From Streptomyces angustmyceticus (GTDB taxonomy: Bacteria; Actinomycetota; Actinomycetes; Streptomycetales; Streptomycetaceae): DNA of 64,000 bases. Shown piece after piece: positions 23,616 through 34,025 of the stretch. The stretch's first letter is position 1, and each line of letters starts with the position of its first letter. Made by a program: the position numbers and the translations under genes. The DNA lies in the NCBI RefSeq assembly GCF_019933235.1, contig NZ_CP082945.1:186001-250000 (forward strand), in the 5' to 3' direction. The notes beneath the pieces were generated by a model, which did not search any database, had not been told where the DNA came from, and saw nothing but the letters and a program-made list of their open reading frames with translations.

Positions 23616-26165
23616 ATGACGGGAAAGTCGTTCGAAGCGATGCCCCCTGATCTGGGGGCCTCCCCCACGGTCCGGGGCGCGATCGCCGCCCCGGCGGCCG
23701 GAGTCGAGGGGGTTCTGGCCGCGGTGCTGGCCGATGTCGTGCGCGTCGGTGAGGTGTCGGCCGACAGCCACTTCTTCGACGACCTGGGCGCCGACTCGAT
23801 GGTGATGGCGCAGTTCTGCGCGCGGGTCAGGAAGCACGCGGATCTGCCCTCCATATCGATGAAGGACGTCTACCGGCATCCGACGATCCGAAGCCTGGTG
23901 ACGGCGCTCGCGGCCTCCGTGCCCGCCGCCCCCACTGCACCGCCGGCCTCCGCTCCCGCCGCCCCCGGTGAATCATCGGCCCCCGCACCGTCGGCTCCGA
24001 CGGGCACGCCCCGCTACGTCCTGTGCGGAGCGCTGCAACTCCTGGCGTTCCTCGGGTACTCGTACCTCGTCGCGTTCGTGGCCGCCAGGGGCTACACCTG
24101 GATATCCGCCGGCTCCGGCCTGGGTGACGTGTACCTTCGGTCGGTACTGTTCGGCGCGGCGGGCTTCATGGGGCTGTGCGTCTTCCCGGTCCTGGTGAAG
24201 TGGGTCCTCATCGGCCGGTGGAAGCCGCGGCAGATCCGCGTCTGGAGCCTGGCGTACGTCCGTCTCTGGATCGTCAAGACGCTGGTCCGTTCCGACCCGA
24301 TGGTCCTGTTCGTGGGTTCGCCGCTCTATGCGCTGTATCTCCGGGCGCTGGGCGCGAGGATCGGGCGGGGCGTCGTGATTCTCTCCAGGAACGTGCCCTT
24401 GTGCACGGATCTGCTCGCCGTCGGCGACGGCGCCCTGATCCGCAAGGACGTGTATTTCACCGGCTATCGGGCGCAGGACGGGGTGATCCGCACCGGCACG
24501 GTCACGCTGGGCAGGAACGCGGTCGTCTGCGAAGCCACCGTGCTCGACATCGACACCGCGCTGGGCGAGGCGGCCCAGCTCGGCCACGCCTCCTCGTTGC
24601 ACAGCGGACAGGCGGTGCCCGACGGCGAGCGCTGGCACGGGTCACCGGCGCAACGCACCGATGTGGACTACCAGGCGGTGGGCCCGGTCGCGTGCGGTGC
24701 CGCGCGGCGGGTGCTGCACAGCCTCGTGCAGTTGCTGACCGTGCTCCTCGTGTACGTGCCGCTGGCGATCGGGGCCGTGGGTCTCCTGCTCGCGGTGGCG
24801 CCGCAGCTCGCCGCCGCTCTGGAGCCAGGGCCCTCGGCCCTGACGACCTGGACGTTCTACGCCGACGCCCTGGCGTTCTCGCTCGTCGTGTTCTTCGGTG
24901 CCCTTCCGCTCGGTCTCCTGCTGATGGTCACGGTGCCGCGTCTGCTGAACCGGACCATCACACCGGGCAGGGTCTATCCCCTGTACGGCTTCCACTACGG
25001 GGCGCACCGGGCGATCACGTTCCTGACCAACCGGCGGTCCCTGATGCGGCTGTTCGGTGACAGCTCCTGCGTCGTCCACTACCTGCGGTGCCTGGGGTAC
25101 GACCTCTCGCGGATCGAGCAGACCGGGTCGAACTTCGGCACCGAGGTCAAGCACGAGACGCCGTACCTGAGTTCCGTCGGCAGCGGCACGATGGTCGCCG
25201 ACGGGTTGTCGGTCAACAACGCCGACTACTCCAGCACGTCGTTCCGGGTCGCGCGGACGTCGATCGGGCCCCGCAACTTCCTCGGGAACCGGATCGCCTA
25301 CCCGTCGCGGGGCAGGACGGGCGACAACTGCCTGCTCGCGACGAAGGTGATGGTCCCCGTCGACGGGGAGGTCCGGGAGGGTGTGGGGCTGCTGGGCTCG
25401 CCCAGTTTCGAGATTCCGCGGTCGGTGCGGCGCGACAGCAGCTTCGACGGGCTGAAGAGCGAGGAGCAGCTGCGTCACCGCCTGCCCGCCAAGAACAGGC
25501 ACAATGTCGTCACCATGGGCTGGTACCTGCTGGTCCGCTGGATCTACTTCTTCCTGGTCACCCTGCTCGTCTCGGCCGCCGCCGACCTCTACGCCCCGTT
25601 CGGCGCGGCGGCGATCGCGCTGGCCAACGTCCTGGTCGTGCTGTTCACGGCCGTGTACTACGTGCTGGTCGAGCGCGCCGTCACGGCCTGCCACCCCACG
25701 GGCCCGCTGTTCTGCTCGATCTACGACCAGCGCTTCTGGCAGCGGGAACGCTTCTGGAAGGTGCCGTCGGAGACGTATCTGCGGCTGTTCGACGGCACTC
25801 CGTTCAAGAGCCTGATCTGGCGGATGCTGGGGGTCCGCACCGGCCGCCGGGTCTTCGACGACGGCTGCTATCTGACCGAGCGGACGATGGTGACCCTCGG
25901 GGACGGCTGCACGCTCAACACGGGGAGCGTCGTCCAGTGCCATTCGCAGGAGGACGGCGCCTTCAAGTCCGACCGCAGCACGGTCGGTCCCGGAGCGACG
26001 CTGGGGGTCGGCGCCTTCGTGCACTACGGGGTGGCGATCGGCGACGGCGCCGTGCTCGCCCCCGACTCCTTCCTCATGAAGGGCGAAGTCCTCCCGCCGC
26101 GTGCGCGGTGGGGAGGAAATCCGGCCCGGCAGATCGGCCGGGGCGACGGCGGGGAGTGGAGGTAG
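23616..26165 (+). CDS. Pls/PosA-type synthetase, carrier plus membrane/hexapeptide part, no adenylation domain
   Basis: 849 residues. An acyl/peptidyl carrier domain comes first (residues about 28-105) with Ser61 in DLGADSMVMAQF as the phosphopantetheine site. After a Pro/Ala linker come six hydrophobic segments in pairs (about 131-200, 365-445, 630-690) separated by three soluble domains with left-handed beta-helix hexapeptide character (GARIGRGVVILSRNVPL; SVGSGTMVADGLSVNN; CTLNTGSVVQCHSQEDGAF). This is the C-terminal architecture known from epsilon-poly-L-lysine synthetase and the poly-L-Dap synthetase, where it joins amino acids without a normal condensation domain. Those enzymes carry an adenylation domain in the same chain; here it is missing and encoded 4 bases downstream. 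I infer iterative polymerisation at the membrane. Confidence 0.88.
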   Translation: MTGKSFEAMPPDLGASPTVRGAIAAPAAGVEGVLAAVLADVVRVGEVSADSHFFDDLGADSMVMAQFCARVRKHADLPSISMKDVYRHPTIRSLVTALAASVPAAPTAPPASAPAAPGESSAPAPSAPTGTPRYVLCGALQLLAFLGYSYLVAFVAARGYTWISAGSGLGDVYLRSVLFGAAGFMGLCVFPVLVKWVLIGRWKPRQIRVWSLAYVRLWIVKTLVRSDPMVLFVGSPLYALYLRALGARIGRGVVILSRNVPLCTDLLAVGDGALIRKDVYFTGYRAQDGVIRTGTVTLGRNAVVCEATVLDIDTALGEAAQLGHASSLHSGQAVPDGERWHGSPAQRTDVDYQAVGPVACGAARRVLHSLVQLLTVLLVYVPLAIGAVGLLLAVAPQLAAALEPGPSALTTWTFYADALAFSLVVFFGALPLGLLLMVTVPRLLNRTITPGRVYPLYGFHYGAHRAITFLTNRRSLMRLFGDSSCVVHYLRCLGYDLSRIEQTGSNFGTEVKHETPYLSSVGSGTMVADGLSVNNADYSSTSFRVARTSIGPRNFLGNRIAYPSRGRTGDNCLLATKVMVPVDGEVREGVGLLGSPSFEIPRSVRRDSSFDGLKSEEQLRHRLPAKNRHNVVTMGWYLLVRWIYFFLVTLLVSAAADLYAPFGAAAIALANVLVVLFTAVYYVLVERAVTACHPTGPLFCSIYDQRFWQRERFWKVPSETYLRLFDGTPFKSLIWRMLGVRTGRRVFDDGCYLTERTMVTLGDGCTLNTGSVVQCHSQEDGAFKSDRSTVGPGATLGVGAFVHYGVAIGDGAVLAPDSFLMKGEVLPPRARWGGNPARQIGRGDGGEWR

Positions 26166-26169
26166 CGCG

Positions 26170-29100
26170 ATGACCACGCCTCTGAAGCACGATGTGGGCC
26201 CGCGCCACGAGGTGGCCGCCGCGGGCGGGTTCGCCACGGTGCCGCGCTGGACCCGTACCCCGGTTCCGGGTACCGCCGTATACGAGGCGGGGCTGCCCGA
26301 GGATCTGCTGCCGGCGCTGGAGCGGTGGGCACGGGAGTGGGGCGTCGCGCGCGACTCGGTGCTGCTGGCCGCGCATGCCAAGGTGCTCGGCGCGCTGAGC
26401 GGTGAGCAGAGCGTCGCGACCCGATACGTCCCGGTGGCGGGTGGCGGTCCGGTGCCCTGCCGGCTGTCGGCCGCGGGCGAGTCGTGGCGGTCGCTGGTGC
26501 GTGACACGCATCAGGCCGTCTCCCGGCTTACGGCGCGGCCGGGCTCCCCGGGCGACGGCCCCGGGGACGCCGCGGAGCCGTCCGCTCCGTTGCCCGAGAC
26601 GGCGTTCGACCCGACCGGTGCCGGAGGCGCGGCCGAGGGCGCGGTGCTGCGGGTGGCGGTGGTGCGCCAGGACGGCGCGGACCTGCTGCGGCTGCAGTAC
26701 CGGACCGAGGTGCTCGACGAGGCCGCCGCCGCCAGGATCGCCGGATACCACCTCACCGCGCTCACCCTGCTCGCCGCCGGCCCGGAGGCGGCGCACGGGC
26801 GGCAGAGTCTGCTGTCCACCGAGGAACTGCGCTTCCAGCTCGCAGCGCTCGCCGGCCCGCACCGGGCGCTGCCGGAGTACCGGTTCCACGAGCTGTTCGA
26901 GCAGCGTGTACGGGCGCACCCGGACGCCGTCGCGGCCGTGCACGGCGACCGGCGGTGGACGTACGGGGAGCTCAACGCCCGCGCCAACCGGCTGGCCCAC
27001 GCCCTGCGGGCCGCCGGACTGCGTCGGCAGGACGTGGTCGCGGTGGTGACCGCACGCACTCTGGACTGGCCGGCGGCCGTCCTCGCGGTCTTCAAGGCCG
27101 GAGGCACGTACCTGCCCGTCGAACCGCACTTCCCCGCCGACCGGATCGCCGCGATGCTCTCCCGTGCCTCGTGCGGGCTGGTGCTGACCGAACCCGGCAG
27201 CACGGCCACCCTCGACCAGGCCCTGGAGTCGCTGCCCGGGGTCCGGCGGCTCTTCATCGACGCGGCGTGCGAGGGAAGCCCGGACGAGAGCGACCCCGGC
27301 GTGCCCGTCGCCCCGGACGACCTCGCGTACGTCTTCTTCACGTCCGGCTCCACCGGTGAGCCCAAGGGCGCGATGTGCGAGCACGAGGGCATGCTCAACC
27401 ACCTCTACGCCAAGATCGACGACTTGGAGATCGGTGAGGGGCAGGTCGTCGCCCAGACCGCGCCGCAGTGCTTCGACATCTCCCTGTGGCAGCTGCTGTC
27501 CGCGCTGCTGGTCGGCGGGCGGACGCTGCTGGTCGAGCAGGAGGCCGTCCTGGACGTCGGGCGGTTCCTCGACACCATCGACGGTGGCCGGGCCGACGTG
27601 CTCCAGGTGGTGCCGTCCTACCTCGACGTCGTGCTGTCCTTCCTGGAGCAGCACCCCCGCGAACTGCCTACCCTGCGCTGTGTGTCGGTCACCGGCGAGG
27701 CGCTGAAGAAGGAGCTCGTCGAGCGCTGGTTCGCGGCCGCGCCCCGGATCAGGCTGGTCAACGCCTACGGGTTGACCGAGACCTCCGACGACACCAATCA
27801 CGAGGTCATGGACCGGGTCCCGGACGGCGAACGGATCCCGCTCGGCCGTCCCGTCAACAACGTGCGCCTCTACCTGGTGGACGCGCATCTGTCCCCGGTG
27901 CCGCTCGGTGCCCCCGGCGAGATCGTCTTCTCCGGGGTGTGCGTCGGCCGCGGATACGTCAACGACCCGGAGCGCACCCGGCTGGCCTTCACCACGGATC
28001 CGTACCGTCCGGGCAGCCGGCTCTACCGGTCCGGCGACTACGGCCGGTGGCGGCCGGACGGAAAGCTGGAGTTCCTCGGCCGCCGGGACACCCAGGTCAA
28101 GATCCGTGGCTTCCGGATCGAGACCGGCGAGATCGAGAACACCCTGCTGCGGGTGCCCGGGGTCCGTGACGGTGCCGTCGTGGTCTCCCAACAGGCCGGC
28201 CGGGGGCAGCGGCTGGTGGCCTTCTACTCCGGTCCTCGCCCGCTGGAGGCGGGTGCGCTGCAGGACCGGCTGGGCCGGTCGCTGCCCGCGTACATGGTCC
28301 CGTCGGCCTTCCACTGGCGGGAGAGCCTCCCGCTGACGGCCAACGGAAAGGTCGACAAGAAGGCGCTGGCCGCTCTCGCCGACGCGGACGACCCCGCCGA
28401 GGACGACCGCCGCCCGCCCGGCACACCGGCCGAAGAGCGGCTCGCCGCCGCCTGGGCCGAGGTCCTCGGGATTCCGCCGGACCGGATCGGCGGCCAGGAC
28501 GACTTCTTCGCGCTCGGCGGCACCTCGCTCTCGGCCGTCAAGGTCGCGATCCGCCTGGAGCGGGTGGTCTCCCCCAGGGACCTGGCCCAGCATCCGGTCC
28601 TCGCCGACCTGGCCCGGCTCGTCGAGAGCCGCACCGCGGCCGGCTCCGCGCCGCCGCCGACGCGGCCCGAGGGGCGCGCCCCGGTGCACGACACCGGCCG
28701 GGCCCCCGCCGCAGCAGACCGAGCCGACGCCGACCGAAAGGACACCACGATGGCTTCCTCCCTCCCGACCTCACTGCCCGGCCTGGAGTCCCCGGCCGGC
28801 CGGACACCGATGCTGCGGCTCGACGCCGCCGTCGACGCGGCGGACTGGGTGGCCGAACACCGGGACGCGCTGCGCGCCGCCGTCGTCGAACACGGTGCGC
28901 TCCTCGTCCGCGGTCTCGGCCTCCGGCACCCGGACGAGGTCGGCGCGGTCCGTCAGCGGATGGGCCTGCTTCCGGTGACGGAGAAGGAGTCCTTCGCTCC
29001 CCGGAAGACCCACTCCGAGGGCGTCTACTCCTCGTCCGCCTGGCCGCCGAACCAGCCGATGTGCATGCACCACGAACTGAGCTACACGCTGGAGTTCCCC

Positions 29101-29754
29101 GGCCTGATGCTGTTCGCCTGCCTCGGCGCCCCCGGTGAGGGAGGAGCCACCGGCGTCGCGGACTCCGCGGCGGTGCTCGACGCGCTGCCGCCGGGGCTCA
29201 TCGAGCGGTTCGAGCGGGAGGGCTGGCTGCTGGACCGCAGCTACCACGACGAGATCGGCGCCTCCTTGTCGGAGGCGTTCGGCACCGACGACCGCGGCGC
29301 CATCGAGGACTACTGCCGTTCTCACGCCATTCAGTTCACCTGGCAGCCCGACGGCGGACTGCGCACCCGCCAGCGCCGCAGCGCCGTGGTGCGCCACCCC
29401 GTCAGCGGGCGGCGCTGCTGGTTCAACCAGATCGCGTTCCTCAACGAGTGGACGATGGCACCCGAGGTGCGCGAGTACCTCATCGACGAGTACGGCGCCG
29501 ACGGGCTGCCGTTCAACACCCGTTACGGCAACGGCGACCCCCTCACCGAGGACACCGTCCAGCTGCTCAGCAAGGTCTACGACGCACACACCGTGCGCCG
29601 CCCCTGGCAGGCCGGTGACCTGCTGCTCGTCGACAACGTCCGCACCGCACACAGCAGGGAGCCCTTCGCAGGACCACGGGAGGTGGTGGTGGCGATGGCC
29701 GAGCCGCTGCGCCTGGCCGACTGCTCACCGACCATCGAGGTGACCGTCCCGTGA
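26170..29754 (+). CDS. NRPS protein: half-C, adenylation, carrier, fused SyrP-like 2-oxoglutarate oxygenase
   Basis: 1194 residues. Residues about 35-225 resemble the C-terminal half of a condensation domain, lacking the HHxxxDG half. The adenylation domain (about 235-735) shows A3 FFTSGSTGEPKGA near 389, A5 NAYGLTETSDD near 531, A8 near 640 (VKIRGFRIETGEIE) and A10 LTANGKVDKK near 722. The carrier domain follows with Ser near 786 (FFALGGTSLSAVK). Residues 861-1194 are a TauD/SyrP-like Fe(II) oxygenase: H966/E968 in MCMHHELSY, distal H1161 and 2-oxoglutarate Arg R1170. It probably activates the amino acid supplied by SbnA/SbnB, loads it for the membrane protein upstream, and may hydroxylate it while tethered. 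No thioesterase is present. Confidence 0.9.
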   Translation: MTTPLKHDVGPRHEVAAAGGFATVPRWTRTPVPGTAVYEAGLPEDLLPALERWAREWGVARDSVLLAAHAKVLGALSGEQSVATRYVPVAGGGPVPCRLSAAGESWRSLVRDTHQAVSRLTARPGSPGDGPGDAAEPSAPLPETAFDPTGAGGAAEGAVLRVAVVRQDGADLLRLQYRTEVLDEAAAARIAGYHLTALTLLAAGPEAAHGRQSLLSTEELRFQLAALAGPHRALPEYRFHELFEQRVRAHPDAVAAVHGDRRWTYGELNARANRLAHALRAAGLRRQDVVAVVTARTLDWPAAVLAVFKAGGTYLPVEPHFPADRIAAMLSRASCGLVLTEPGSTATLDQALESLPGVRRLFIDAACEGSPDESDPGVPVAPDDLAYVFFTSGSTGEPKGAMCEHEGMLNHLYAKIDDLEIGEGQVVAQTAPQCFDISLWQLLSALLVGGRTLLVEQEAVLDVGRFLDTIDGGRADVLQVVPSYLDVVLSFLEQHPRELPTLRCVSVTGEALKKELVERWFAAAPRIRLVNAYGLTETSDDTNHEVMDRVPDGERIPLGRPVNNVRLYLVDAHLSPVPLGAPGEIVFSGVCVGRGYVNDPERTRLAFTTDPYRPGSRLYRSGDYGRWRPDGKLEFLGRRDTQVKIRGFRIETGEIENTLLRVPGVRDGAVVVSQQAGRGQRLVAFYSGPRPLEAGALQDRLGRSLPAYMVPSAFHWRESLPLTANGKVDKKALAALADADDPAEDDRRPPGTPAEERLAAAWAEVLGIPPDRIGGQDDFFALGGTSLSAVKVAIRLERVVSPRDLAQHPVLADLARLVESRTAAGSAPPPTRPEGRAPVHDTGRAPAAADRADADRKDTTMASSLPTSLPGLESPAGRTPMLRLDAAVDAADWVAEHRDALRAAVVEHGALLVRGLGLRHPDEVGAVRQRMGLLPVTEKESFAPRKTHSEGVYSSSAWPPNQPMCMHHELSYTLEFPGLMLFACLGAPGEGGATGVADSAAVLDALPPGLIERFEREGWLLDRSYHDEIGASLSEAFGTDDRGAIEDYCRSHAIQFTWQPDGGLRTRQRRSAVVRHPVSGRRCWFNQIAFLNEWTMAPEVREYLIDEYGADGLPFNTRYGNGDPLTEDTVQLLSKVYDAHTVRRPWQAGDLLLVDNVRTAHSREPFAGPREVVVAMAEPLRLADCSPTIEVTVP
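28736..28752 (+). promoter_or_regulatory. internal ribosome-binding site and ATG at the oxygenase domain
   Basis: GAAAGGAC lies at 28736-28743 and an in-frame ATG at 28750. This ATG is exactly where the oxygenase domain begins (MASSLPTSLPGLES), so a separate 334-residue oxygenase could be translated as well as the fusion. Confidence 0.45.
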
Positions 29755-30824
29755 ACACCGTCCGCTCCAGCGCAACGGAGTCCGCCATGACCGAATCGCC
29801 GCTCACCGTGCCCCCGTTCGCGGTGATCTCAGGAGCCCGGGTCCGCGCCGCCCTGCACGGACGCGAGAAGCACCTCGTGGCCGTGGTCGAGGAGACCTAC
29901 CGGCTGCACGGCGCCGGGGACTCGGTGAACCCGCCGTCCTCGTTCCTCCGGTTCCCCGACCGCCCCGCGTCGCGGATGATCTCGCTGCCCGCCTCCATCG
30001 GCGGGGAGGCGCGGGTGGACGGGCTGAAGTGGATCTCCAGCTTCCCGGAGAACGTGGCGTCCGGCCTGCCCCGGGCATCCGCGGTGCTGATCCTCAACGA
30101 CCCGGCCACCGGCTACCCGTTCGCCTGCCTGGAGAGCTCGATCATCAGCGCCACCAGGACCGCCGCGTCGGCGGCGTCGGCGGCCGACTGGCTCAGCCGC
30201 GGCCGCCCGCGGCCGGTGCGCGTCGGATTCTTCGGTGCGGGCCTGATCGCCCGCTACATCCACACGTTCCTGGAGGGCACCGGCTGGTCGTTCGACGAGA
30301 TCGGCGTGCACGACCTGTCCGCGGACAGCGCGGCCGGCTTCCGCCGGTACCTGGAGCAGTCCGGCACCGCGGGCCGGATCATCGTGCACCGCAGCGCCGA
30401 GGAGCTGATCCGTCAGAGCGATCTGGTGGTCTTCGCCACCATCGCCGGTGAGCCGCATGTCGACGACCCCTCCTGGTTCGCCCACAACCCGGTGGTCCTG
30501 CACATCTCGCTGCGCGACCTCGCGCCGCGGATCCTGCTGGCCTCCACCAACATCGTCGACGACGTCGAGCACTGCCTCCACGCCGCCACGTCGCCGCACC
30601 TGACCGAACAGCTCACGGGCAACCGGGACTTCCTGCACGGCACGCTGGACGACGTGATGCGCGGACGGGTGACGATCCCGGCGGACCGGCCGGCCGTCTT
30701 CTCCCCGTTCGGCCTCGGAGTGCTCGACCTCGCGGTCGGCAAGTACGTCTACGACGAGGTCGCCCGCTCGAGACAACTGCAGGTCATCGATGACTTCTTC
30801 CACGAACTGCGCCGGTACGGATGA
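29751..30824 (+). CDS. sbnB: SbnB-like N-(2-amino-2-carboxyethyl)-L-glutamate dehydrogenase
   Basis: A 357-residue member of the ornithine-cyclodeaminase/mu-crystallin family. In the staphyloferrin B pathway SbnB oxidatively cleaves N-(2-amino-2-carboxyethyl)-L-glutamate with NAD+ to L-2,3-diaminopropionate, 2-oxoglutarate and NADH. Family signs are the Rossmann loop VGFFGAGLIARYIHTFLEGT near residue 160, the substrate region SRMISLPASIGG with GLKWISSFPEN, and the C-terminal SPFGLGVLDLAVGKYVYDEV. The GTG start overlaps the stop of the preceding gene (GTGA, 29751-29754), so translation is coupled; ATG 29787 is an alternative. Its by-product 2-oxoglutarate is the co-substrate of the fused oxygenase. 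Confidence 0.9.
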   Translation: MNTVRSSATESAMTESPLTVPPFAVISGARVRAALHGREKHLVAVVEETYRLHGAGDSVNPPSSFLRFPDRPASRMISLPASIGGEARVDGLKWISSFPENVASGLPRASAVLILNDPATGYPFACLESSIISATRTAASAASAADWLSRGRPRPVRVGFFGAGLIARYIHTFLEGTGWSFDEIGVHDLSADSAAGFRRYLEQSGTAGRIIVHRSAEELIRQSDLVVFATIAGEPHVDDPSWFAHNPVVLHISLRDLAPRILLASTNIVDDVEHCLHAATSPHLTEQLTGNRDFLHGTLDDVMRGRVTIPADRPAVFSPFGLGVLDLAVGKYVYDEVARSRQLQVIDDFFHELRRYG

Positions 30825-30908
30825 GCCCGGCCCCGGATAGGTGAGGAGCCCGCCACTGCCGTCGGATGGATATTCCGAGGGTGCTCTGCTCCAGAGGAGG
30901 GACCCATC

Positions 30909-31994
30909 ATGCCAGTCATCACCGTTCCCTACGCCTTCAACGAGGAAGAGCTCTACGTCGACCTCGAGGCGATCTTCGGGCAGTCACTGTTCCTCAAGTG
31001 CGAGGGCCTCAACTTCGCCGGGTCGATCAAACTGAAGGCCGCAACAGAAATGGTGGAGGCAGCCGAGCGGGAGGGCGCCCTGACTCCGGAATCGGTCCTG
31101 GTCGAGTCCTCGTCCGGCAACCTGGGCGTGGCACTGAGCATGATCGCGGCGAGCAAGGGCTACCGGTTCCTGTGCGTGACGGACTCCCGCTGCAACCTGT
31201 CGACCCGGCTGATGATGGAGGCGCTGGGCAGCCAGGTGCACGTCGTGGCCGCCGACGAGGCGAGCGGCGGCTTCCTCGGCGCGCGGCTCGACTACGTCCG
31301 CGATCTGTGCGCCTCCGACGACCGCTGGGTGTGGCTGAGCCAGTACACCAACCCGGGCAACTGGCAGGCCCACTACCGCAGGACGGCACCGGCGATCGCC
31401 CGCTGGTTCCCGCGCCTGGACGTGCTGTTCATCGGGGCCGGCACCACCGGCACCCTGATGGGCTGTGCGCGTTACTTCCGCGAGTGGCACCGGCCGGTGC
31501 AGATCATCGCGGTGGACAGCGTGGGTTCGGTGACCTTCGGCGGCGCACCGGGGCGCCGCATGATCCCCGGCCTGGGCATGAGCGTCCATCCCCCGCTGCT
31601 CGACGAGTCCTTCGTGGACGAGGCGGTACGCGTCGAGGAGGCGGACACGGTCCGCGCCTGCCACCAACTGGCCCGGCACGGCTTCCTCTTCGGCGGCTCG
31701 ACGGGCACTGTCGTCAGCGGCGCGATGGACTGGCTGTCCCGGCACGACACCCGCGGCCTCACCGCCGTGGCCATCGCCCCTGACCTGGGCGAGCGCTACC
31801 TCGACACCATCTACCAGGCCAACTGGGTGCAGGACCTGTACGGCGAGGAACTGCTCGGCTCCGACGGGGCCTTGGACGGGCCCGCCCCGGTATGCCCGCT
31901 GCCCGCTCCCCCGGAAGCCCGCCCGGCGCCGCCGAGGCGTTCACCCGACCCCCAGCCGCGCGAGGAGCGCAAGGAGCAGGCGGGCGATATCTGA
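30909..31994 (+). CDS. sbnA: SbnA-like N-(2-amino-2-carboxyethyl)-L-glutamate synthase
   Basis: A 361-residue PLP enzyme of the cysteine-synthase fold. SbnA condenses O-phospho-L-serine with L-glutamate to the precursor cleaved by SbnB. The PLP lysine is K41 in FAGSIKLKAA, the phosphate and substrate loop is ESSSGNLGVAL, and the glycine loop is GAGTTGTLMG, with GGSTGTVVSG near the end. The last 40 residues or so form a Pro/Arg/Glu-rich tail that the family does not need. CAGAGGAGGG lies just upstream of the ATG; the gap to sbnB is 84 bases. Together with sbnB it supplies L-Dap for the synthetase genes. Confidence 0.92.
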   Translation: MPVITVPYAFNEEELYVDLEAIFGQSLFLKCEGLNFAGSIKLKAATEMVEAAEREGALTPESVLVESSSGNLGVALSMIAASKGYRFLCVTDSRCNLSTRLMMEALGSQVHVVAADEASGGFLGARLDYVRDLCASDDRWVWLSQYTNPGNWQAHYRRTAPAIARWFPRLDVLFIGAGTTGTLMGCARYFREWHRPVQIIAVDSVGSVTFGGAPGRRMIPGLGMSVHPPLLDESFVDEAVRVEEADTVRACHQLARHGFLFGGSTGTVVSGAMDWLSRHDTRGLTAVAIAPDLGERYLDTIYQANWVQDLYGEELLGSDGALDGPAPVCPLPAPPEARPAPPRRSPDPQPREERKEQAGDI

Positions 31995-32082: not shown

Positions 32083-32425
32083 CTGGCCCTGCGTTCTCTC
32101 CCGCCTCCGCTGACCGTCGGCCGCCTGGCCGTGCGGTCGGCGGGGGCGGGGCATGCAGGGGCAGGGACAGGGAGGAGATGGGGTGGGGTGGAGTGGGGCG
32201 GGGTGGCGCGGGCCGTCGGCCACAAAAGCTACTTGTTTGCATTAGGCGTCATCATCCCCTACCCTTTCATTAACGCAAAGTCTTTGCTTTAGACGGAGAT
32301 GCCGGTTCCACTTGACCATGGACCGCCGCACACACCGGCCCCCTCATCCCTCATCCCTCATCCCTCATCCCTACTCCGCACACCGCACACCGCACACCGC
32401 ACACCGCACACCGCAAGGACACTCC
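32083..32425 (+). promoter_or_regulatory. intergenic region with AT-rich segment, small palindrome and heptamer repeats
   Basis: A purine-rich run lies around 32155-32210, then an AT-rich stretch (32220-32292) containing the palindrome GCAAAG-T-CTTTGC at 32275-32287, a likely operator or promoter for the AtzG/AtzE-like pair. Two heptamer arrays run directly up to the ribosome binding site. Confidence 0.5.
32341..32417. repeat. two adjoining heptamer arrays
   Basis: CCCTCAT repeated four times plus one variant (32341-32375), followed by CCGCACA five times plus a sixth altered copy (32376-32417). The last unit blends into the AAGGA ribosome binding site of the gene at 32426. Confidence 0.9.
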
Positions 32426-32635
32426 ATGACATCCGTCGAACTCACCGCCGGGGACGTCGCTCGGTGGGCGCTGCACGCCGGGCTCCCGCTGCCGGACGAG
32501 CGCCATACCGACGTGGCCGCCACCGCGAACTACATCCACACCGTCATCAGCACTCTGCGCGAACTGGACTTCGGAGAGACCCCGCCCGCCGCGGCCTACA
32601 GCATCGAAGGGGTGGCGGCCGATGCAGCCGTTTGA
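32426..32635 (+). CDS. AtzG/GatC-like small subunit
   Basis: A 69-residue helical protein: LTAGDVARWALHAGLPLPDE, then a second helix VAATANYIHTVISTLRELDF, and a tail SIEGVAADAAV. It resembles the AtzG/DUF4089 group, small GatC-like subunits that wrap around a partner amidase. Its reading frame overlaps the start of the amidase gene by 14 bases, which is typical for such pairs. AAGGA precedes the ATG. Confidence 0.7.
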   Translation: MTSVELTAGDVARWALHAGLPLPDERHTDVAATANYIHTVISTLRELDFGETPPAAAYSIEGVAADAAV

Positions 32636-34025
32636 GCTGACTCTTGCCGAAGCGGCCACGGCCCTGGAGGAGCGGACGCTCTCCCCGGTGGAGCTGACCG
32701 AGTCCGTCCTCGAACGCATCGGCGCCGTCGACGAACGGCTGGGGGCCTATGTCACCGTGGCCGGCGAGACGGCGCGCAACTCGGCCGCGCGGGCGGAACG
32801 CGAGATCGCGGACGGCAGGTACCGCGGCCCGCTGCACGGCATCCCGTTCGGGCTGAAGGACATGATCGATGTCGCCGGAATGCCGACCACGGCCAGCTCC
32901 CGCGTCAGGGCCGGCCACCTCGCGCAGACGGACAGCACCGTGGCGCGGCAACTGTCCGCAGCAGGCGGGGTCCTGCTGGGGAAGACGCACACGCACGAGT
33001 TCGCCTACGGGCTGACAACACCTCAGACCCGCAACGCCTGGTCCCAGGAGCACGTGGCGGGCGGATCGAGTGGTGGTTCGGCGGTCGCCGTGGCCGCCGG
33101 CGAGGCCACCTTCGCCCTGGGGACGGACACCGGCGGCTCGATCCGCGTACCCGCGGCACTCAACGGGACGGTCGGCCTCAAGCCGACCTACGGCCTCGTC
33201 TCCCGGCACGGCGTGACCGCACTGTCCTGGTCGCTGGACCACGTCGGCCCCCTCACCCGCACGGTCCGGGACGCGGCCCTCGTCCTCTCCGCACTGGTGG
33301 GCCACGACCCCCAGGACCCGGCGAGCCTCCGCGCGGTGCCGTCCGCCTGCCCGCTGCCGCCGGACGGTGGCGACATGACGGGCCTGCGCATCGGAGTACC
33401 CGTCAACTACTACTTCGACCGAGTCGCCCCCGAGGTCGAAGCCGCCGTGCGCGAGGCGCTCACACAGATGACGGACATGGGAGCCGAACTCGTCGAGGTC
33501 GAGATCCCGATGACGCGCTACATCCAGCCGACCCACTGGGGCCTGATGGTCCCCGAGGCGACCGCCTACCACGAACGCACGCTGCGGTCCGTACCGGAGC
33601 TCTACGGCCCCGACGTACGGATTCTCCTGGAGGCCGGCGAGCTGGTCTCGGCGGGCGACTATCTGCGCGCCCAGCGCTCCCGCACCCTCATGCGTCAGGC
33701 GTGGCTGCGCCTCTTCGACGGCATCGATGTACTCGCGGCGCCCACCGTGCCGATAACCGCCGCCAAGACGGACCAGCAGACCGTCCAATGGCCCGACGGC
33801 ACCACGGAAGGCGTCCCCGACGCCTATGTCCGCCTCTCTGCCCCGGCGAACATCACCGGTCTGCCGGCCCTGAGCCTGTCGGCCGGACGCGATCGTGCGG
33901 GCCTGCCCATCGGGTTGCAGCTGATAGGGCGCCCGCTGGCGGAAGCGACCCTGCTGCGCACGGGCCACGCGTACGAGTGCGCCCGGGGCGTGGTCGACCG
34001 GGGGTCTGCCGTGGCAGGAGCCTGA
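32622..34025 (+). CDS. amidase, AtzE/GatA-like
   Basis: A 467-residue amidase-signature enzyme. K79 (GIPFGLKDMID), S149 (VAGGSSGGSA) and S173 (TDTGGSIRVPA) form the triad. The length and the overlapping small GatC-like gene match the AtzG-AtzE type (1-carboxybiuret hydrolase) better than tRNA amidotransferase, which would also need GatB. It has no signal peptide. Likely substrates are small amides or ureido compounds. Whether it belongs to the Dap operon is doubtful because 430 bases with a new AT-rich promoter-like segment separate them. Confidence 0.88.
   Translation: MQPFELTLAEAATALEERTLSPVELTESVLERIGAVDERLGAYVTVAGETARNSAARAEREIADGRYRGPLHGIPFGLKDMIDVAGMPTTASSRVRAGHLAQTDSTVARQLSAAGGVLLGKTHTHEFAYGLTTPQTRNAWSQEHVAGGSSGGSAVAVAAGEATFALGTDTGGSIRVPAALNGTVGLKPTYGLVSRHGVTALSWSLDHVGPLTRTVRDAALVLSALVGHDPQDPASLRAVPSACPLPPDGGDMTGLRIGVPVNYYFDRVAPEVEAAVREALTQMTDMGAELVEVEIPMTRYIQPTHWGLMVPEATAYHERTLRSVPELYGPDVRILLEAGELVSAGDYLRAQRSRTLMRQAWLRLFDGIDVLAAPTVPITAAKTDQQTVQWPDGTTEGVPDAYVRLSAPANITGLPALSLSAGRDRAGLPIGLQLIGRPLAEATLLRTGHAYECARGVVDRGSAVAGA

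What the first reader, a model, noticed from the sequence alone, without database searches (positions are those of the whole stretch)
23616..31994. Split Pls-type synthetase with its own diaminopropionate supply: candidate system for a Dap polymer or oligomer
Four tightly linked genes combine (1) a carrier domain plus the 6-TM/three-hexapeptide-domain part of poly-lysine synthetase without an adenylation domain, (2) a separate half-C/A/T protein with a fused Fe/2OG oxygenase, (3) SbnB and (4) SbnA. Seen in sequence: domain order, 4-bp gap and GTGA overlap. Known: poly-epsilon-lysine synthetase and the poly-L-Dap synthetase of Streptomyces albulus are single chains A-T-TM-hexapeptide; SbnA/SbnB make L-Dap. 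Inferred: here adenylation is supplied in trans and the product may be a hydroxylated or otherwise altered poly- or oligo-Dap.
Basis: partly seen in the sequence, partly recalled or inferred. Interest (0 to 1): 0.93.

Follow-up and report, generated by a model that had tools for sequence, protein, structure and literature searches.

The report
Split synthetase for oxidised diaminopropionate oligomers
This genome carries a gene set, kept together in dozens of actinomycete genomes, that is predicted to make the amino acid diaminopropionate, likely oxidise it on a carrier protein and likely link it into short chains, which would be a new kind of natural isopeptide.

Summary
Four genes (23616-31994) encode an A-less Pls/PosA-type membrane synthetase with its own carrier domain, an A-T protein fused to a TauD oxygenase, SbnB and SbnA. 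It is not a one-off. Of 70 split-type loci, 63 have the A protein alongside, 61 TauD, 59 SbnB, 60 SbnA; 0 of 21 single-chain Pls loci have TauD, SbnB or SbnA. The order is the same in 55 of 64 complete loci. The A pocket is nearly fixed (DIWQSTADDK in 70 of 82 relatives, otherwise one or two changes) and matches PvdL's pocket at 7 of the 9 positions aligned. It differs from the lysine-type pocket of the genome's own single-chain enzyme. TauD is usually a separate gene. A-T, TauD, SbnB and SbnA also occur without the Pls-type protein in 10 loci, so the oxygenase probably acts on the monomer. Best reading: Dap is made, loaded in trans, oxidised on a carrier and joined into an isopeptide oligomer. 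Dap specificity, oxidation and oligomer formation are inferred. I found no product or description of this set in the openly licensed papers searched. New variant of a known kind.

The parts
23616..26165 (+). PlsT: A-less Pls/PosA-type membrane synthetase with its own carrier domain (849 aa)
   Evidence: TIGR02353 full length 760.7 bits; PF00550; AlphaFold2 model
23715..23909 (+). carrier domain T1 of PlsT (residues 34-98); phosphopantetheine Ser61
   Evidence: PF00550 9.5e-10; the Ser is present in 63 of 63 loci with A and 8 of 8 without, and is shared with single-chain Pls
24021..26126 (+). six-TM / three-hexapeptide (C1-C3) region, residues 136-837
   Evidence: TIGR02353 1-695/695; predicted long helices 131-164, 169-198, 362-394, 412-445, 616-662, 664-692 and three beta-helix domains; weak matches to hexapeptide acetyltransferases
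26170..29754 (+). N-terminal region - A - T - TauD fusion (1194 aa)
   Evidence: single open frame
26170..26844 (+). N-terminal region, possibly the remnant of a condensation domain (half-C)
   Evidence: 42-56% identity in the 26 of 34 genome-contig loci that have it; weak partial PF00668 match in relative L090 only
26896..27957 (+). adenylation domain core, pocket DIWQSTADDK
   Evidence: PF00501 6.1e-84; code; PvdL alignment
28435..28623 (+). carrier domain T2
   Evidence: PF00550 5.1e-14; GGTS serine in 61 of 61 readable relatives
28750..28752 (+). internal ATG (residue 861) with AAAGGA just upstream, near the place where relatives start a separate TauD gene
   Evidence: alignment
28834..29694 (+). 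TauD-type Fe/2OG oxygenase domain (residues 889-1175)
   Evidence: PF02668 6.2e-43; H-x-E in 61 of 61 and distal H and R in 59 of 59 readable relatives; AlphaFold2 model pLDDT 83.8, TauD-family fold
29751..30824 (+). SbnB (2,3-diaminopropionate biosynthesis)
   Evidence: TIGR03944 405.9 bits, cut-off 326.9; GTGA overlap with the gene before
30909..31994 (+). SbnA (2,3-diaminopropionate biosynthesis)
   Evidence: TIGR03945 384.8 bits, cut-off 349.95

Best explanation
The window holds a five-activity gene set (an A-less Pls-type membrane synthetase with its own carrier domain, an A-T protein fused to a TauD oxygenase, SbnB and SbnA) that is conserved as a unit in actinomycetes and is predicted to make L-2,3-diaminopropionate, load it on carrier domains, likely oxidise it there and likely join it into an isopeptide oligomer. 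Inferred steps: SbnA and SbnB make Dap; the A domain adenylates it and loads its own T domain and, in trans, the T domain of PlsT; TauD uses iron and 2-oxoglutarate to oxidise carrier-bound Dap (hydroxylation most likely, desaturation possible); the three hexapeptide-fold domains of PlsT make amide bonds at the membrane. In about half of relatives a thioesterase follows A-T and may release or edit carrier-bound material. Shown by calls: domain content, linkage, pocket conservation, retained iron ligands and carrier serines. Not shown: substrate, oxidation, chain length, biological role.
For: Linkage: 32 named split-type loci have A 26, TauD 25, SbnB 24, SbnA 26; 38 unnamed Streptomyces-type split loci have A 37, TauD 36, SbnB 35, SbnA 34; 21 single-chain Pls loci have SbnB 0, SbnA 0, TauD 0. 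Four of the 63 loci with A lack SbnB and four lack SbnA; L153, L151 and L060 (both genes) and L093 (SbnA) are cut by a contig or fetched-region end, L049 truly lacks SbnB nearby. Same order in 55 of 64 complete loci; SbnA sits upstream in the other 9 (three of the 64, L051, L053 and L075, count a fragment at a contig end). Trans supply: 5 of 6 genomes with an isolated PlsT encode the A protein at 65-71% identity elsewhere, and the sixth has contig-edge pieces at 70%. Family core kept: 88 positions, the carrier serine among them, are shared by 25 split and 21 single-chain proteins. Pocket: DIWQSTADDK 70, DIWQSTTDDK 10, DIWQCTTDDK 2 of 82 readable; the PvdL domain aligned reads DIWELTADD, 7 of 9 the same, the tenth position lying outside the alignment (that this PvdL module takes Dab is recalled). 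PMC12283262 (passages): Dap codes are 80% like Dab codes, and DVWQMIGDDK goes with beta-hydroxy-Dab. Monomer-stage oxidation: A, TauD, SbnB and SbnA stay together without PlsT in 10 of the 12 such loci fetched (L177-L186); A-TauD fusions in 3 of 80 relatives plus the window, at separate places in the tree. Three of those 10 loci add a phosphoglycerate dehydrogenase above its equivalog cut-off near SbnA, fitting phosphoserine supply for Dap.
Against: No product is known. The pocket test does not separate Dap from Dab or a related short diamine. PlsT is only about 27% identical to single-chain Pls, so polymerising activity is by family analogy. The model's carrier domain and second hexapeptide domain are low-confidence. 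The closest PDB relative of the TauD domain is an Arabidopsis protein whose record names no reaction; clavaminate synthase matches only weakly, so its reaction is open. Thioesterase was not found in 37 of 83 loci, the window aside (a few of these are cut). Two loci without PlsT (L194, L195) have A, TE and TauD but no SbnA/SbnB in the stretch fetched. The split loci were chosen by PlsT similarity, not at random, and two loci can come from one genome. One named characterised Dap system makes Dap from Ser and Orn, not phosphoserine (PMC4668381).
Confidence: 0.5

Rival explanations
1. PlsT does not polymerise: it couples one oxidised-Dap residue (or a dimer) to another small acceptor, giving a small amide metabolite.
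For: The sub-cassette occurs without PlsT in 10 loci, with NRPS genes beside the four scanned for them, so it looks like a building-block maker; TE is present in 46 of 83 loci; no exporter or second synthetase is conserved beside the set; C1-C3 weakly resemble acetyltransferases.
Against: The characterised members of the Pls/PosA family named in the passages read of PMC10522769 make oligomers or polymers; 88 positions of that family's core are kept; no gene for a second acceptor is conserved.
Confidence: 0.25
2. The product is plain or comb-like poly-Dap: both carrier domains deliver Dap, one for the backbone and one for the side residue, and TauD does something else or acts only at a chain end.
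For: A comb-like L-Dap polymer from a Streptomyces is reported (Takehara 2021, seen only as cited in PMC10522769 and PMC9606270); two separate carrier domains are kept here.
Against: TauD is present in 61 of 63 loci with A and the other two end at a contig edge; its iron ligands are intact where readable. It stays with A, SbnB and SbnA even without PlsT in 10 of 12 loci fetched.
Confidence: 0.15
3. The A domain takes a different amino acid (such as 2,4-diaminobutyrate or 2,3-diaminobutyrate) and SbnA/SbnB serve another purpose.
For: Pocket closest to PvdL among those aligned, apart from one PDB domain of unnamed substrate (9n1u); in one clade the pocket has Thr for Ala at position 7 and a threonine-synthase-like gene is added (10 of 12 loci, against 0 of 70 others); L194 and L195 keep the pocket without SbnA/SbnB in the stretch fetched.
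Against: SbnA and SbnB are each beside A in 59 of 63 loci with PlsT and in 10 of 12 fetched without it; both exceed equivalog cut-offs for Dap synthesis in the window.
Confidence: 0.08

Closest known systems
Poly(L-diaminopropionate) synthetase PDAPs with NjxA/NjxB, Streptomyces albulus PD-1 (PMC4668381, parts 1-3 of 5 read)
   Same: Dap monomer made by homologues of the two Dap enzymes; Pls-type terminal domain
   Different: PDAPs is one chain A-T-TM; its Dap genes are stated not to lie close to it; no oxygenase is described in the parts read; pocket has Phe at position 2 (PMC10522769, passages) where this one has Ile, and this one lacks the Glu at position 3
epsilon-Poly-L-lysine synthetase Pls and PosA (TIGR02353 family; PMC10522769, section 10 and passages read)
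   Same: carrier domain plus six-TM / three-hexapeptide region above the family cut-off; 88 shared conserved positions
   Different: A domain in a separate protein of another A-domain type; extra TauD and often TE; about 27% identity in the shared region; the length filter of that paper's network (1100-1800 aa) would leave out proteins of about 850 aa
Streptothricin ORF5/ORF18/ORF19 (ORF18/ORF19 seen in passages of PMC9606270; ORF5 and the T-C make-up of ORF18 recalled)
   Same: separate A proteins serve a carrier protein in making a diamino-acid isopeptide chain
   Different: no Pls-type membrane region (recalled); beta-lysine; chain growth by a stand-alone A domain
Capreomycin CmnI/CmnA (PMC12400406, title and abstract in search listing)
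   Same: A domain shared in trans with an A-less module; that the antibiotic contains Dap is recalled
   Different: ordinary NRPS modules, no Pls-type protein (recalled)
Staphyloferrin B SbnA/SbnB (PMC3179956, title and start of abstract in search listing)
   Same: same two Dap enzymes
   Different: different assembly enzymes and product
On-carrier amino-acid oxidation by Fe/2OG enzymes, e.g. SyrP (recalled) and AmbC/AmbD (PMC4357302, title and start of abstract in search listing)
   Same: Fe/2OG oxygenase with a thiotemplate partner
   Different: different amino acids; no Pls-type protein (recalled)

Membership tests
Pls/PosA homopoly(amino acid) synthetase | TIGR02353 terminal region above curated cut-off | tested here: met
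   760.7 bits, cut-off 423.1, full length
Pls/PosA homopoly(amino acid) synthetase | six TM helices around three soluble hexapeptide-type domains | tested here: met
   predicted model, weak matches to hexapeptide acetyltransferases; second domain low-confidence
Pls/PosA homopoly(amino acid) synthetase | conserved core positions shared with single-chain members | tested here: met
   88 positions with at most one exception in each of 25 split and 21 single-chain proteins
Pls/PosA homopoly(amino acid) synthetase | A domain in the same chain | tested here: not met
   no AMP-binding match in PlsT; A is on the next gene
Pls/PosA homopoly(amino acid) synthetase | pocket with Asp at position 1 and Glu at position 3 (as stated in PMC10522769) | tested here: not met
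   DIWQSTADDK: Trp at position 3
Pls/PosA homopoly(amino acid) synthetase | makes a homopolymer with isopeptide bonds | not testable with these tools
   needs enzyme assay or mass spectrometry
SbnA/SbnB Dap synthesis | both proteins above curated equivalog cut-offs and adjacent | tested here: met
SbnA/SbnB Dap synthesis | makes L-Dap in vitro | not testable with these tools
   needs assay
TauD-type Fe/2OG oxygenase | family match, H-x-E...H iron ligands and distal Arg | tested here: met
   PF02668 6.2e-43; ligands invariant in readable relatives
NRPS A domain for a short-chain diamine | pocket like a diaminobutyrate/diaminopropionate domain | tested here: inconclusive
   7 of 9 aligned pocket positions identical to PvdL; that the PvdL module takes Dab is recalled, and the pocket does not tell Dap from Dab
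NRPS condensation domain (half-C) | PF00668 match in the N-terminal 225 residues | tested here: inconclusive
   none in the window or L046; weak partial match in L090

The most novel reading that the evidence does not exclude
A widespread, undescribed class of natural isopeptides: oligomers of oxidised (beta-hydroxylated or dehydro) diaminopropionate, built by a Pls-type membrane synthetase that is loaded in trans by a Dap-specific A-T protein, the residue being oxidised on its carrier before it is joined.
Probability: 0.4. Interest if true: 0.8.

Novelty: new variant of a known kind. Interest (0 to 1): 0.62.

Why it matters
In the passages read here, the characterised Pls-type synthetases are single chains that carry their own A domain. 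A split form that shares its A-T partner with other biosynthetic clusters would show how such synthetases acquire modified monomers, and would give a trans-loading system for engineering polyamides. The A partner occurs in 116 of 295 sampled genomes of the window's genus (some of these lack PlsT), so its product may be common and overlooked. The pocket and the fixed gene set make it directly testable.

Tried and rejected
Rejected: that the arrangement is unique to this genome. Rejected: that the TauD fusion is a defining trait; A and TauD share a frame in 3 of 80 relatives. Rejected on pocket evidence: that the genome's single-chain synthetase is the Dap polymerase; it reads DAESVGTVVK, and the 20 other single-chain loci read DAESIGTVVK, one of them with two positions missing. 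Rejected: that isolated PlsT copies work in genomes without this A protein; the six such genomes tested have it elsewhere, in one as contig-edge pieces only, and in five an A copy sits beside another PlsT. Two more PlsT pieces without A (L074, L079) are cut by contig ends and were not tested.

Led nowhere: papers holding the pocket strings (none), NAPAA plus diaminopropionate plus Streptomyces (none), hydroxylated Dap names (13 papers; two opened in passages, both other compounds), wider searches (no description of an A-less Pls with Dap genes seen in the listings; eight papers in all were opened, in parts or passages). The library holds only openly licensed PMC papers, so absence there is weak evidence. 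BLAST of the PlsT protein against itself found no internal repeat. Two alignments of single-chain with split PlsT used wrong reading frames for several single-chain proteins; their identities and position lists are withdrawn, frame-checked, replaces them. The largest PDB scores for the A domain came from summing two LgrA domains, so only the pocket segment was compared.
Full report
WHAT IS THERE. The window is bases 186001-250000 of an 8.1 Mb single-contig genome; the named relatives among the closest PlsT proteins are Streptomyces, so I call it Streptomyces-like. Four genes lie on the + strand. PlsT, 23616-26165, has a carrier domain and a complete TIGR02353 region but no adenylation domain. 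Protein 2, 26170-29754, has AMP-binding, AMP-binding_C, a carrier domain and TauD. SbnB, 29751-30824, and SbnA, 30909-31994, pass their curated Dap-synthesis cut-offs. The 4-bp gap and GTGA overlap are real. An AlphaFold2 model of PlsT from 50 sequences (pLDDT 72, pTM 0.74) shows a carrier domain, six long helices in three pairs and three beta-helix domains, the carrier and second beta-helix poorly defined; weak structural matches are hexapeptide acetyltransferases. Aligned with 21 single-chain proteins, 25 split PlsT share 88 conserved positions, the carrier serine among them, at about 27% identity between the classes.

IT IS A CONSERVED CASSETTE. A scan of named genomes gave 34 loci. Two (L078, L079) had too short a PlsT match and were left out of the count. 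Of the other 32, the A protein is within the stretch in 26, TauD in 25, SbnB in 24, SbnA in 26. Complete or nearly complete sets come from Streptomyces, Kibdelosporangium, Amycolatopsis, Actinoplanes, Pseudonocardia, Blastococcus, Modestobacter, Lentzea and Rhodococcus. From a search of 295 genomes of the window's genus I chose 38 further split-type loci out of a listing that was itself cut; A is present in 37, TauD in 36, SbnB in 35, SbnA in 34. As a control I took 20 single-chain Pls loci from the same listing plus the one of this genome: 0 of 21 have SbnB, SbnA or TauD in the stretch. Among 64 complete loci (8 more split loci were added to the pool) the order PlsT-A-TauD-SbnB-SbnA is kept in 55; in 9 SbnA lies upstream of PlsT. 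Three of the 64 count a gene fragment at a contig end. Apart from antisense frames that I take for artefacts, no other gene is conserved beside the set in most loci.

TRANS ADENYLATION. Six loci have PlsT but no A gene nearby (L048, L054, L061, L069, L071, L103). Five of the six genomes encode the A protein elsewhere at 65-71% identity, and the sixth has contig-edge pieces at 70%; in the first five an A gene stands beside another PlsT copy. The carrier serine of PlsT is present in 63 of 63 loci with A and 8 of 8 without; the T2 serine in 61 of 61 readable. So PlsT keeps a carrier domain that must be loaded from outside, and the A protein found constantly with it is this one (inference).

SUBSTRATE. 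Pocket residues read by position from the window (motif anchoring recalled from GrsA) are DIWQSTADDK. Of 83 relatives 82 could be read: DIWQSTADDK (70), DIWQSTTDDK (10), DIWQCTTDDK (2). Aligned to PvdL of the PDB, 7 of the 9 pocket positions covered are the same, PvdL having Glu and Leu where the window has Gln and Ser (that this module takes Dab is recalled). PMC12283262 (passages) says two Dap codes are 80% identical to Dab codes and gives DVWQMIGDDK for beta-hydroxy-Dab. PMC10522769 (section 10 and passages) says homopolymer synthetases keep Asp at position 1 and Glu at position 3, with Phe at position 2 for Dap and Ala for Lys. The window's A domain is not of that type, whereas the single-chain synthetase of the same genome reads DAESVGTVVK, the lysine type. 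With SbnA and SbnB adjacent, Dap is the best substrate guess; not assayed.

OXIDATION BELONGS TO THE MONOMER. In most relatives TauD lies in its own frame, often as a gene of about 334 aa. The iron ligands H-x-E are present in 61 of 61 and the distal His and Arg in 59 of 59 readable, and the domain models as a TauD fold. I fetched 12 loci with the A protein but no PlsT in the stretch; in 10 (L177-L186) the A, TauD, SbnB and SbnA genes remain together with the same pocket, in two (L194, L195) A, TE and TauD are there without SbnA/SbnB. Pfam scans of chosen genes beside L180, L182, L184 and L185 show NRPS genes: A-methyltransferase modules, an A-KR-T protein and A-T-TE proteins; beside L177 and L179 the genes scanned are of fatty-acid-synthesis type among others. 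L177, L179 and L183 also have a phosphoglycerate dehydrogenase above its equivalog cut-off near SbnA, which fits phosphoserine as Dap precursor. A-TauD fusions occur in 3 of 80 relatives (L177, L178, L192) and in the window, at separate places in the tree. TauD therefore most likely acts on Dap held by the A-T protein, and the polymer or peptide is built from the oxidised residue. The window's fusion still holds an ATG (28750) behind AAAGGA near where separate TauD genes start, so both forms might be made.

ORIGIN. In a quick tree of 84 A domains the PlsT-linked rows form one side of a branch (support 67, so not firm): one coupling of this A-T/TauD/Dap unit to a Pls-type protein is not ruled out. 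The A protein occurs at E <= 1e-200 in 116 of 295 genus genomes; five of these are listed with no TIGR02353 match at all (G006, G026, G069, G127, G138), consistent with the PlsT-less form. Two later calls to count PlsT itself failed.

READING. The set works like Pls in having a carrier domain and a membrane C1-C3 region with the family's conserved core, but fails two stated features of that family (A domain in chain, D-x-E pocket). I file it as a new variant: a split, trans-loaded Pls-type system with an on-carrier oxidation step. The oligomer, the oxidation product and the role are inferred. Searches of openly licensed papers gave no description of this set that I saw; subscription papers are not held. 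A length filter of 1100-1800 residues in the network of PMC10522769 would exclude proteins of about 850 residues.

Noticed in passing
L050:10657-11814, L047:17592-18845, L063, L077 and others: A threonine-synthase-like PLP gene sits near SbnA or SbnB in 10 of 12 loci whose A pocket has Thr instead of Ala at position 7, and in 0 of 70 with Ala. The 12 are one clade, so this is one event; it hints at a changed substrate.
   Followed up: partly
L177-L186: A-T(-TE)/TauD/SbnB/SbnA unit without any Pls-type protein in the stretch; NRPS genes beside the four loci scanned for them. Their products could reveal the modified Dap residue.
   Followed up: partly
L177:4623-6260, L179:13957-15681, L183:14947-16551: Phosphoglycerate dehydrogenase (TIGR01327 above cut-off) next to SbnA in PlsT-less loci, as if to feed phosphoserine.
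   Followed up: partly
P0023, P0024, P0040, P0045 and others: PlsT relatives with two or three tandem carrier domains before the membrane region, among them a Pseudonocardia protein.
   Followed up: no
L090:5052-8588, 46 of 83 loci: Many relatives carry a thioesterase (PF00975 in L090) behind A-T; none is seen in the window's protein.
   Followed up: partly
L048, L054, L061, L069, L071, L103: Isolated PlsT copies without an adjacent A gene but with an intact carrier serine.
   Followed up: partly
own genome C1:7535130-7537178 (L088) and C1:7220752-7222698 (L089): A single-chain lysine-type Pls and a second SbnA/SbnB pair (about 50% identical) about 0.31 Mb apart on the same chromosome.
   Followed up: partly
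L194, L195: A-T-TE with the same pocket plus TauD on the other strand, but no SbnA/SbnB in the stretch fetched.
   Followed up: no
window 32312-34025: A small unassigned gene and an AtzE-like amidase (PF01425) follow SbnA; neither was found in the related loci searched.
   Followed up: partly
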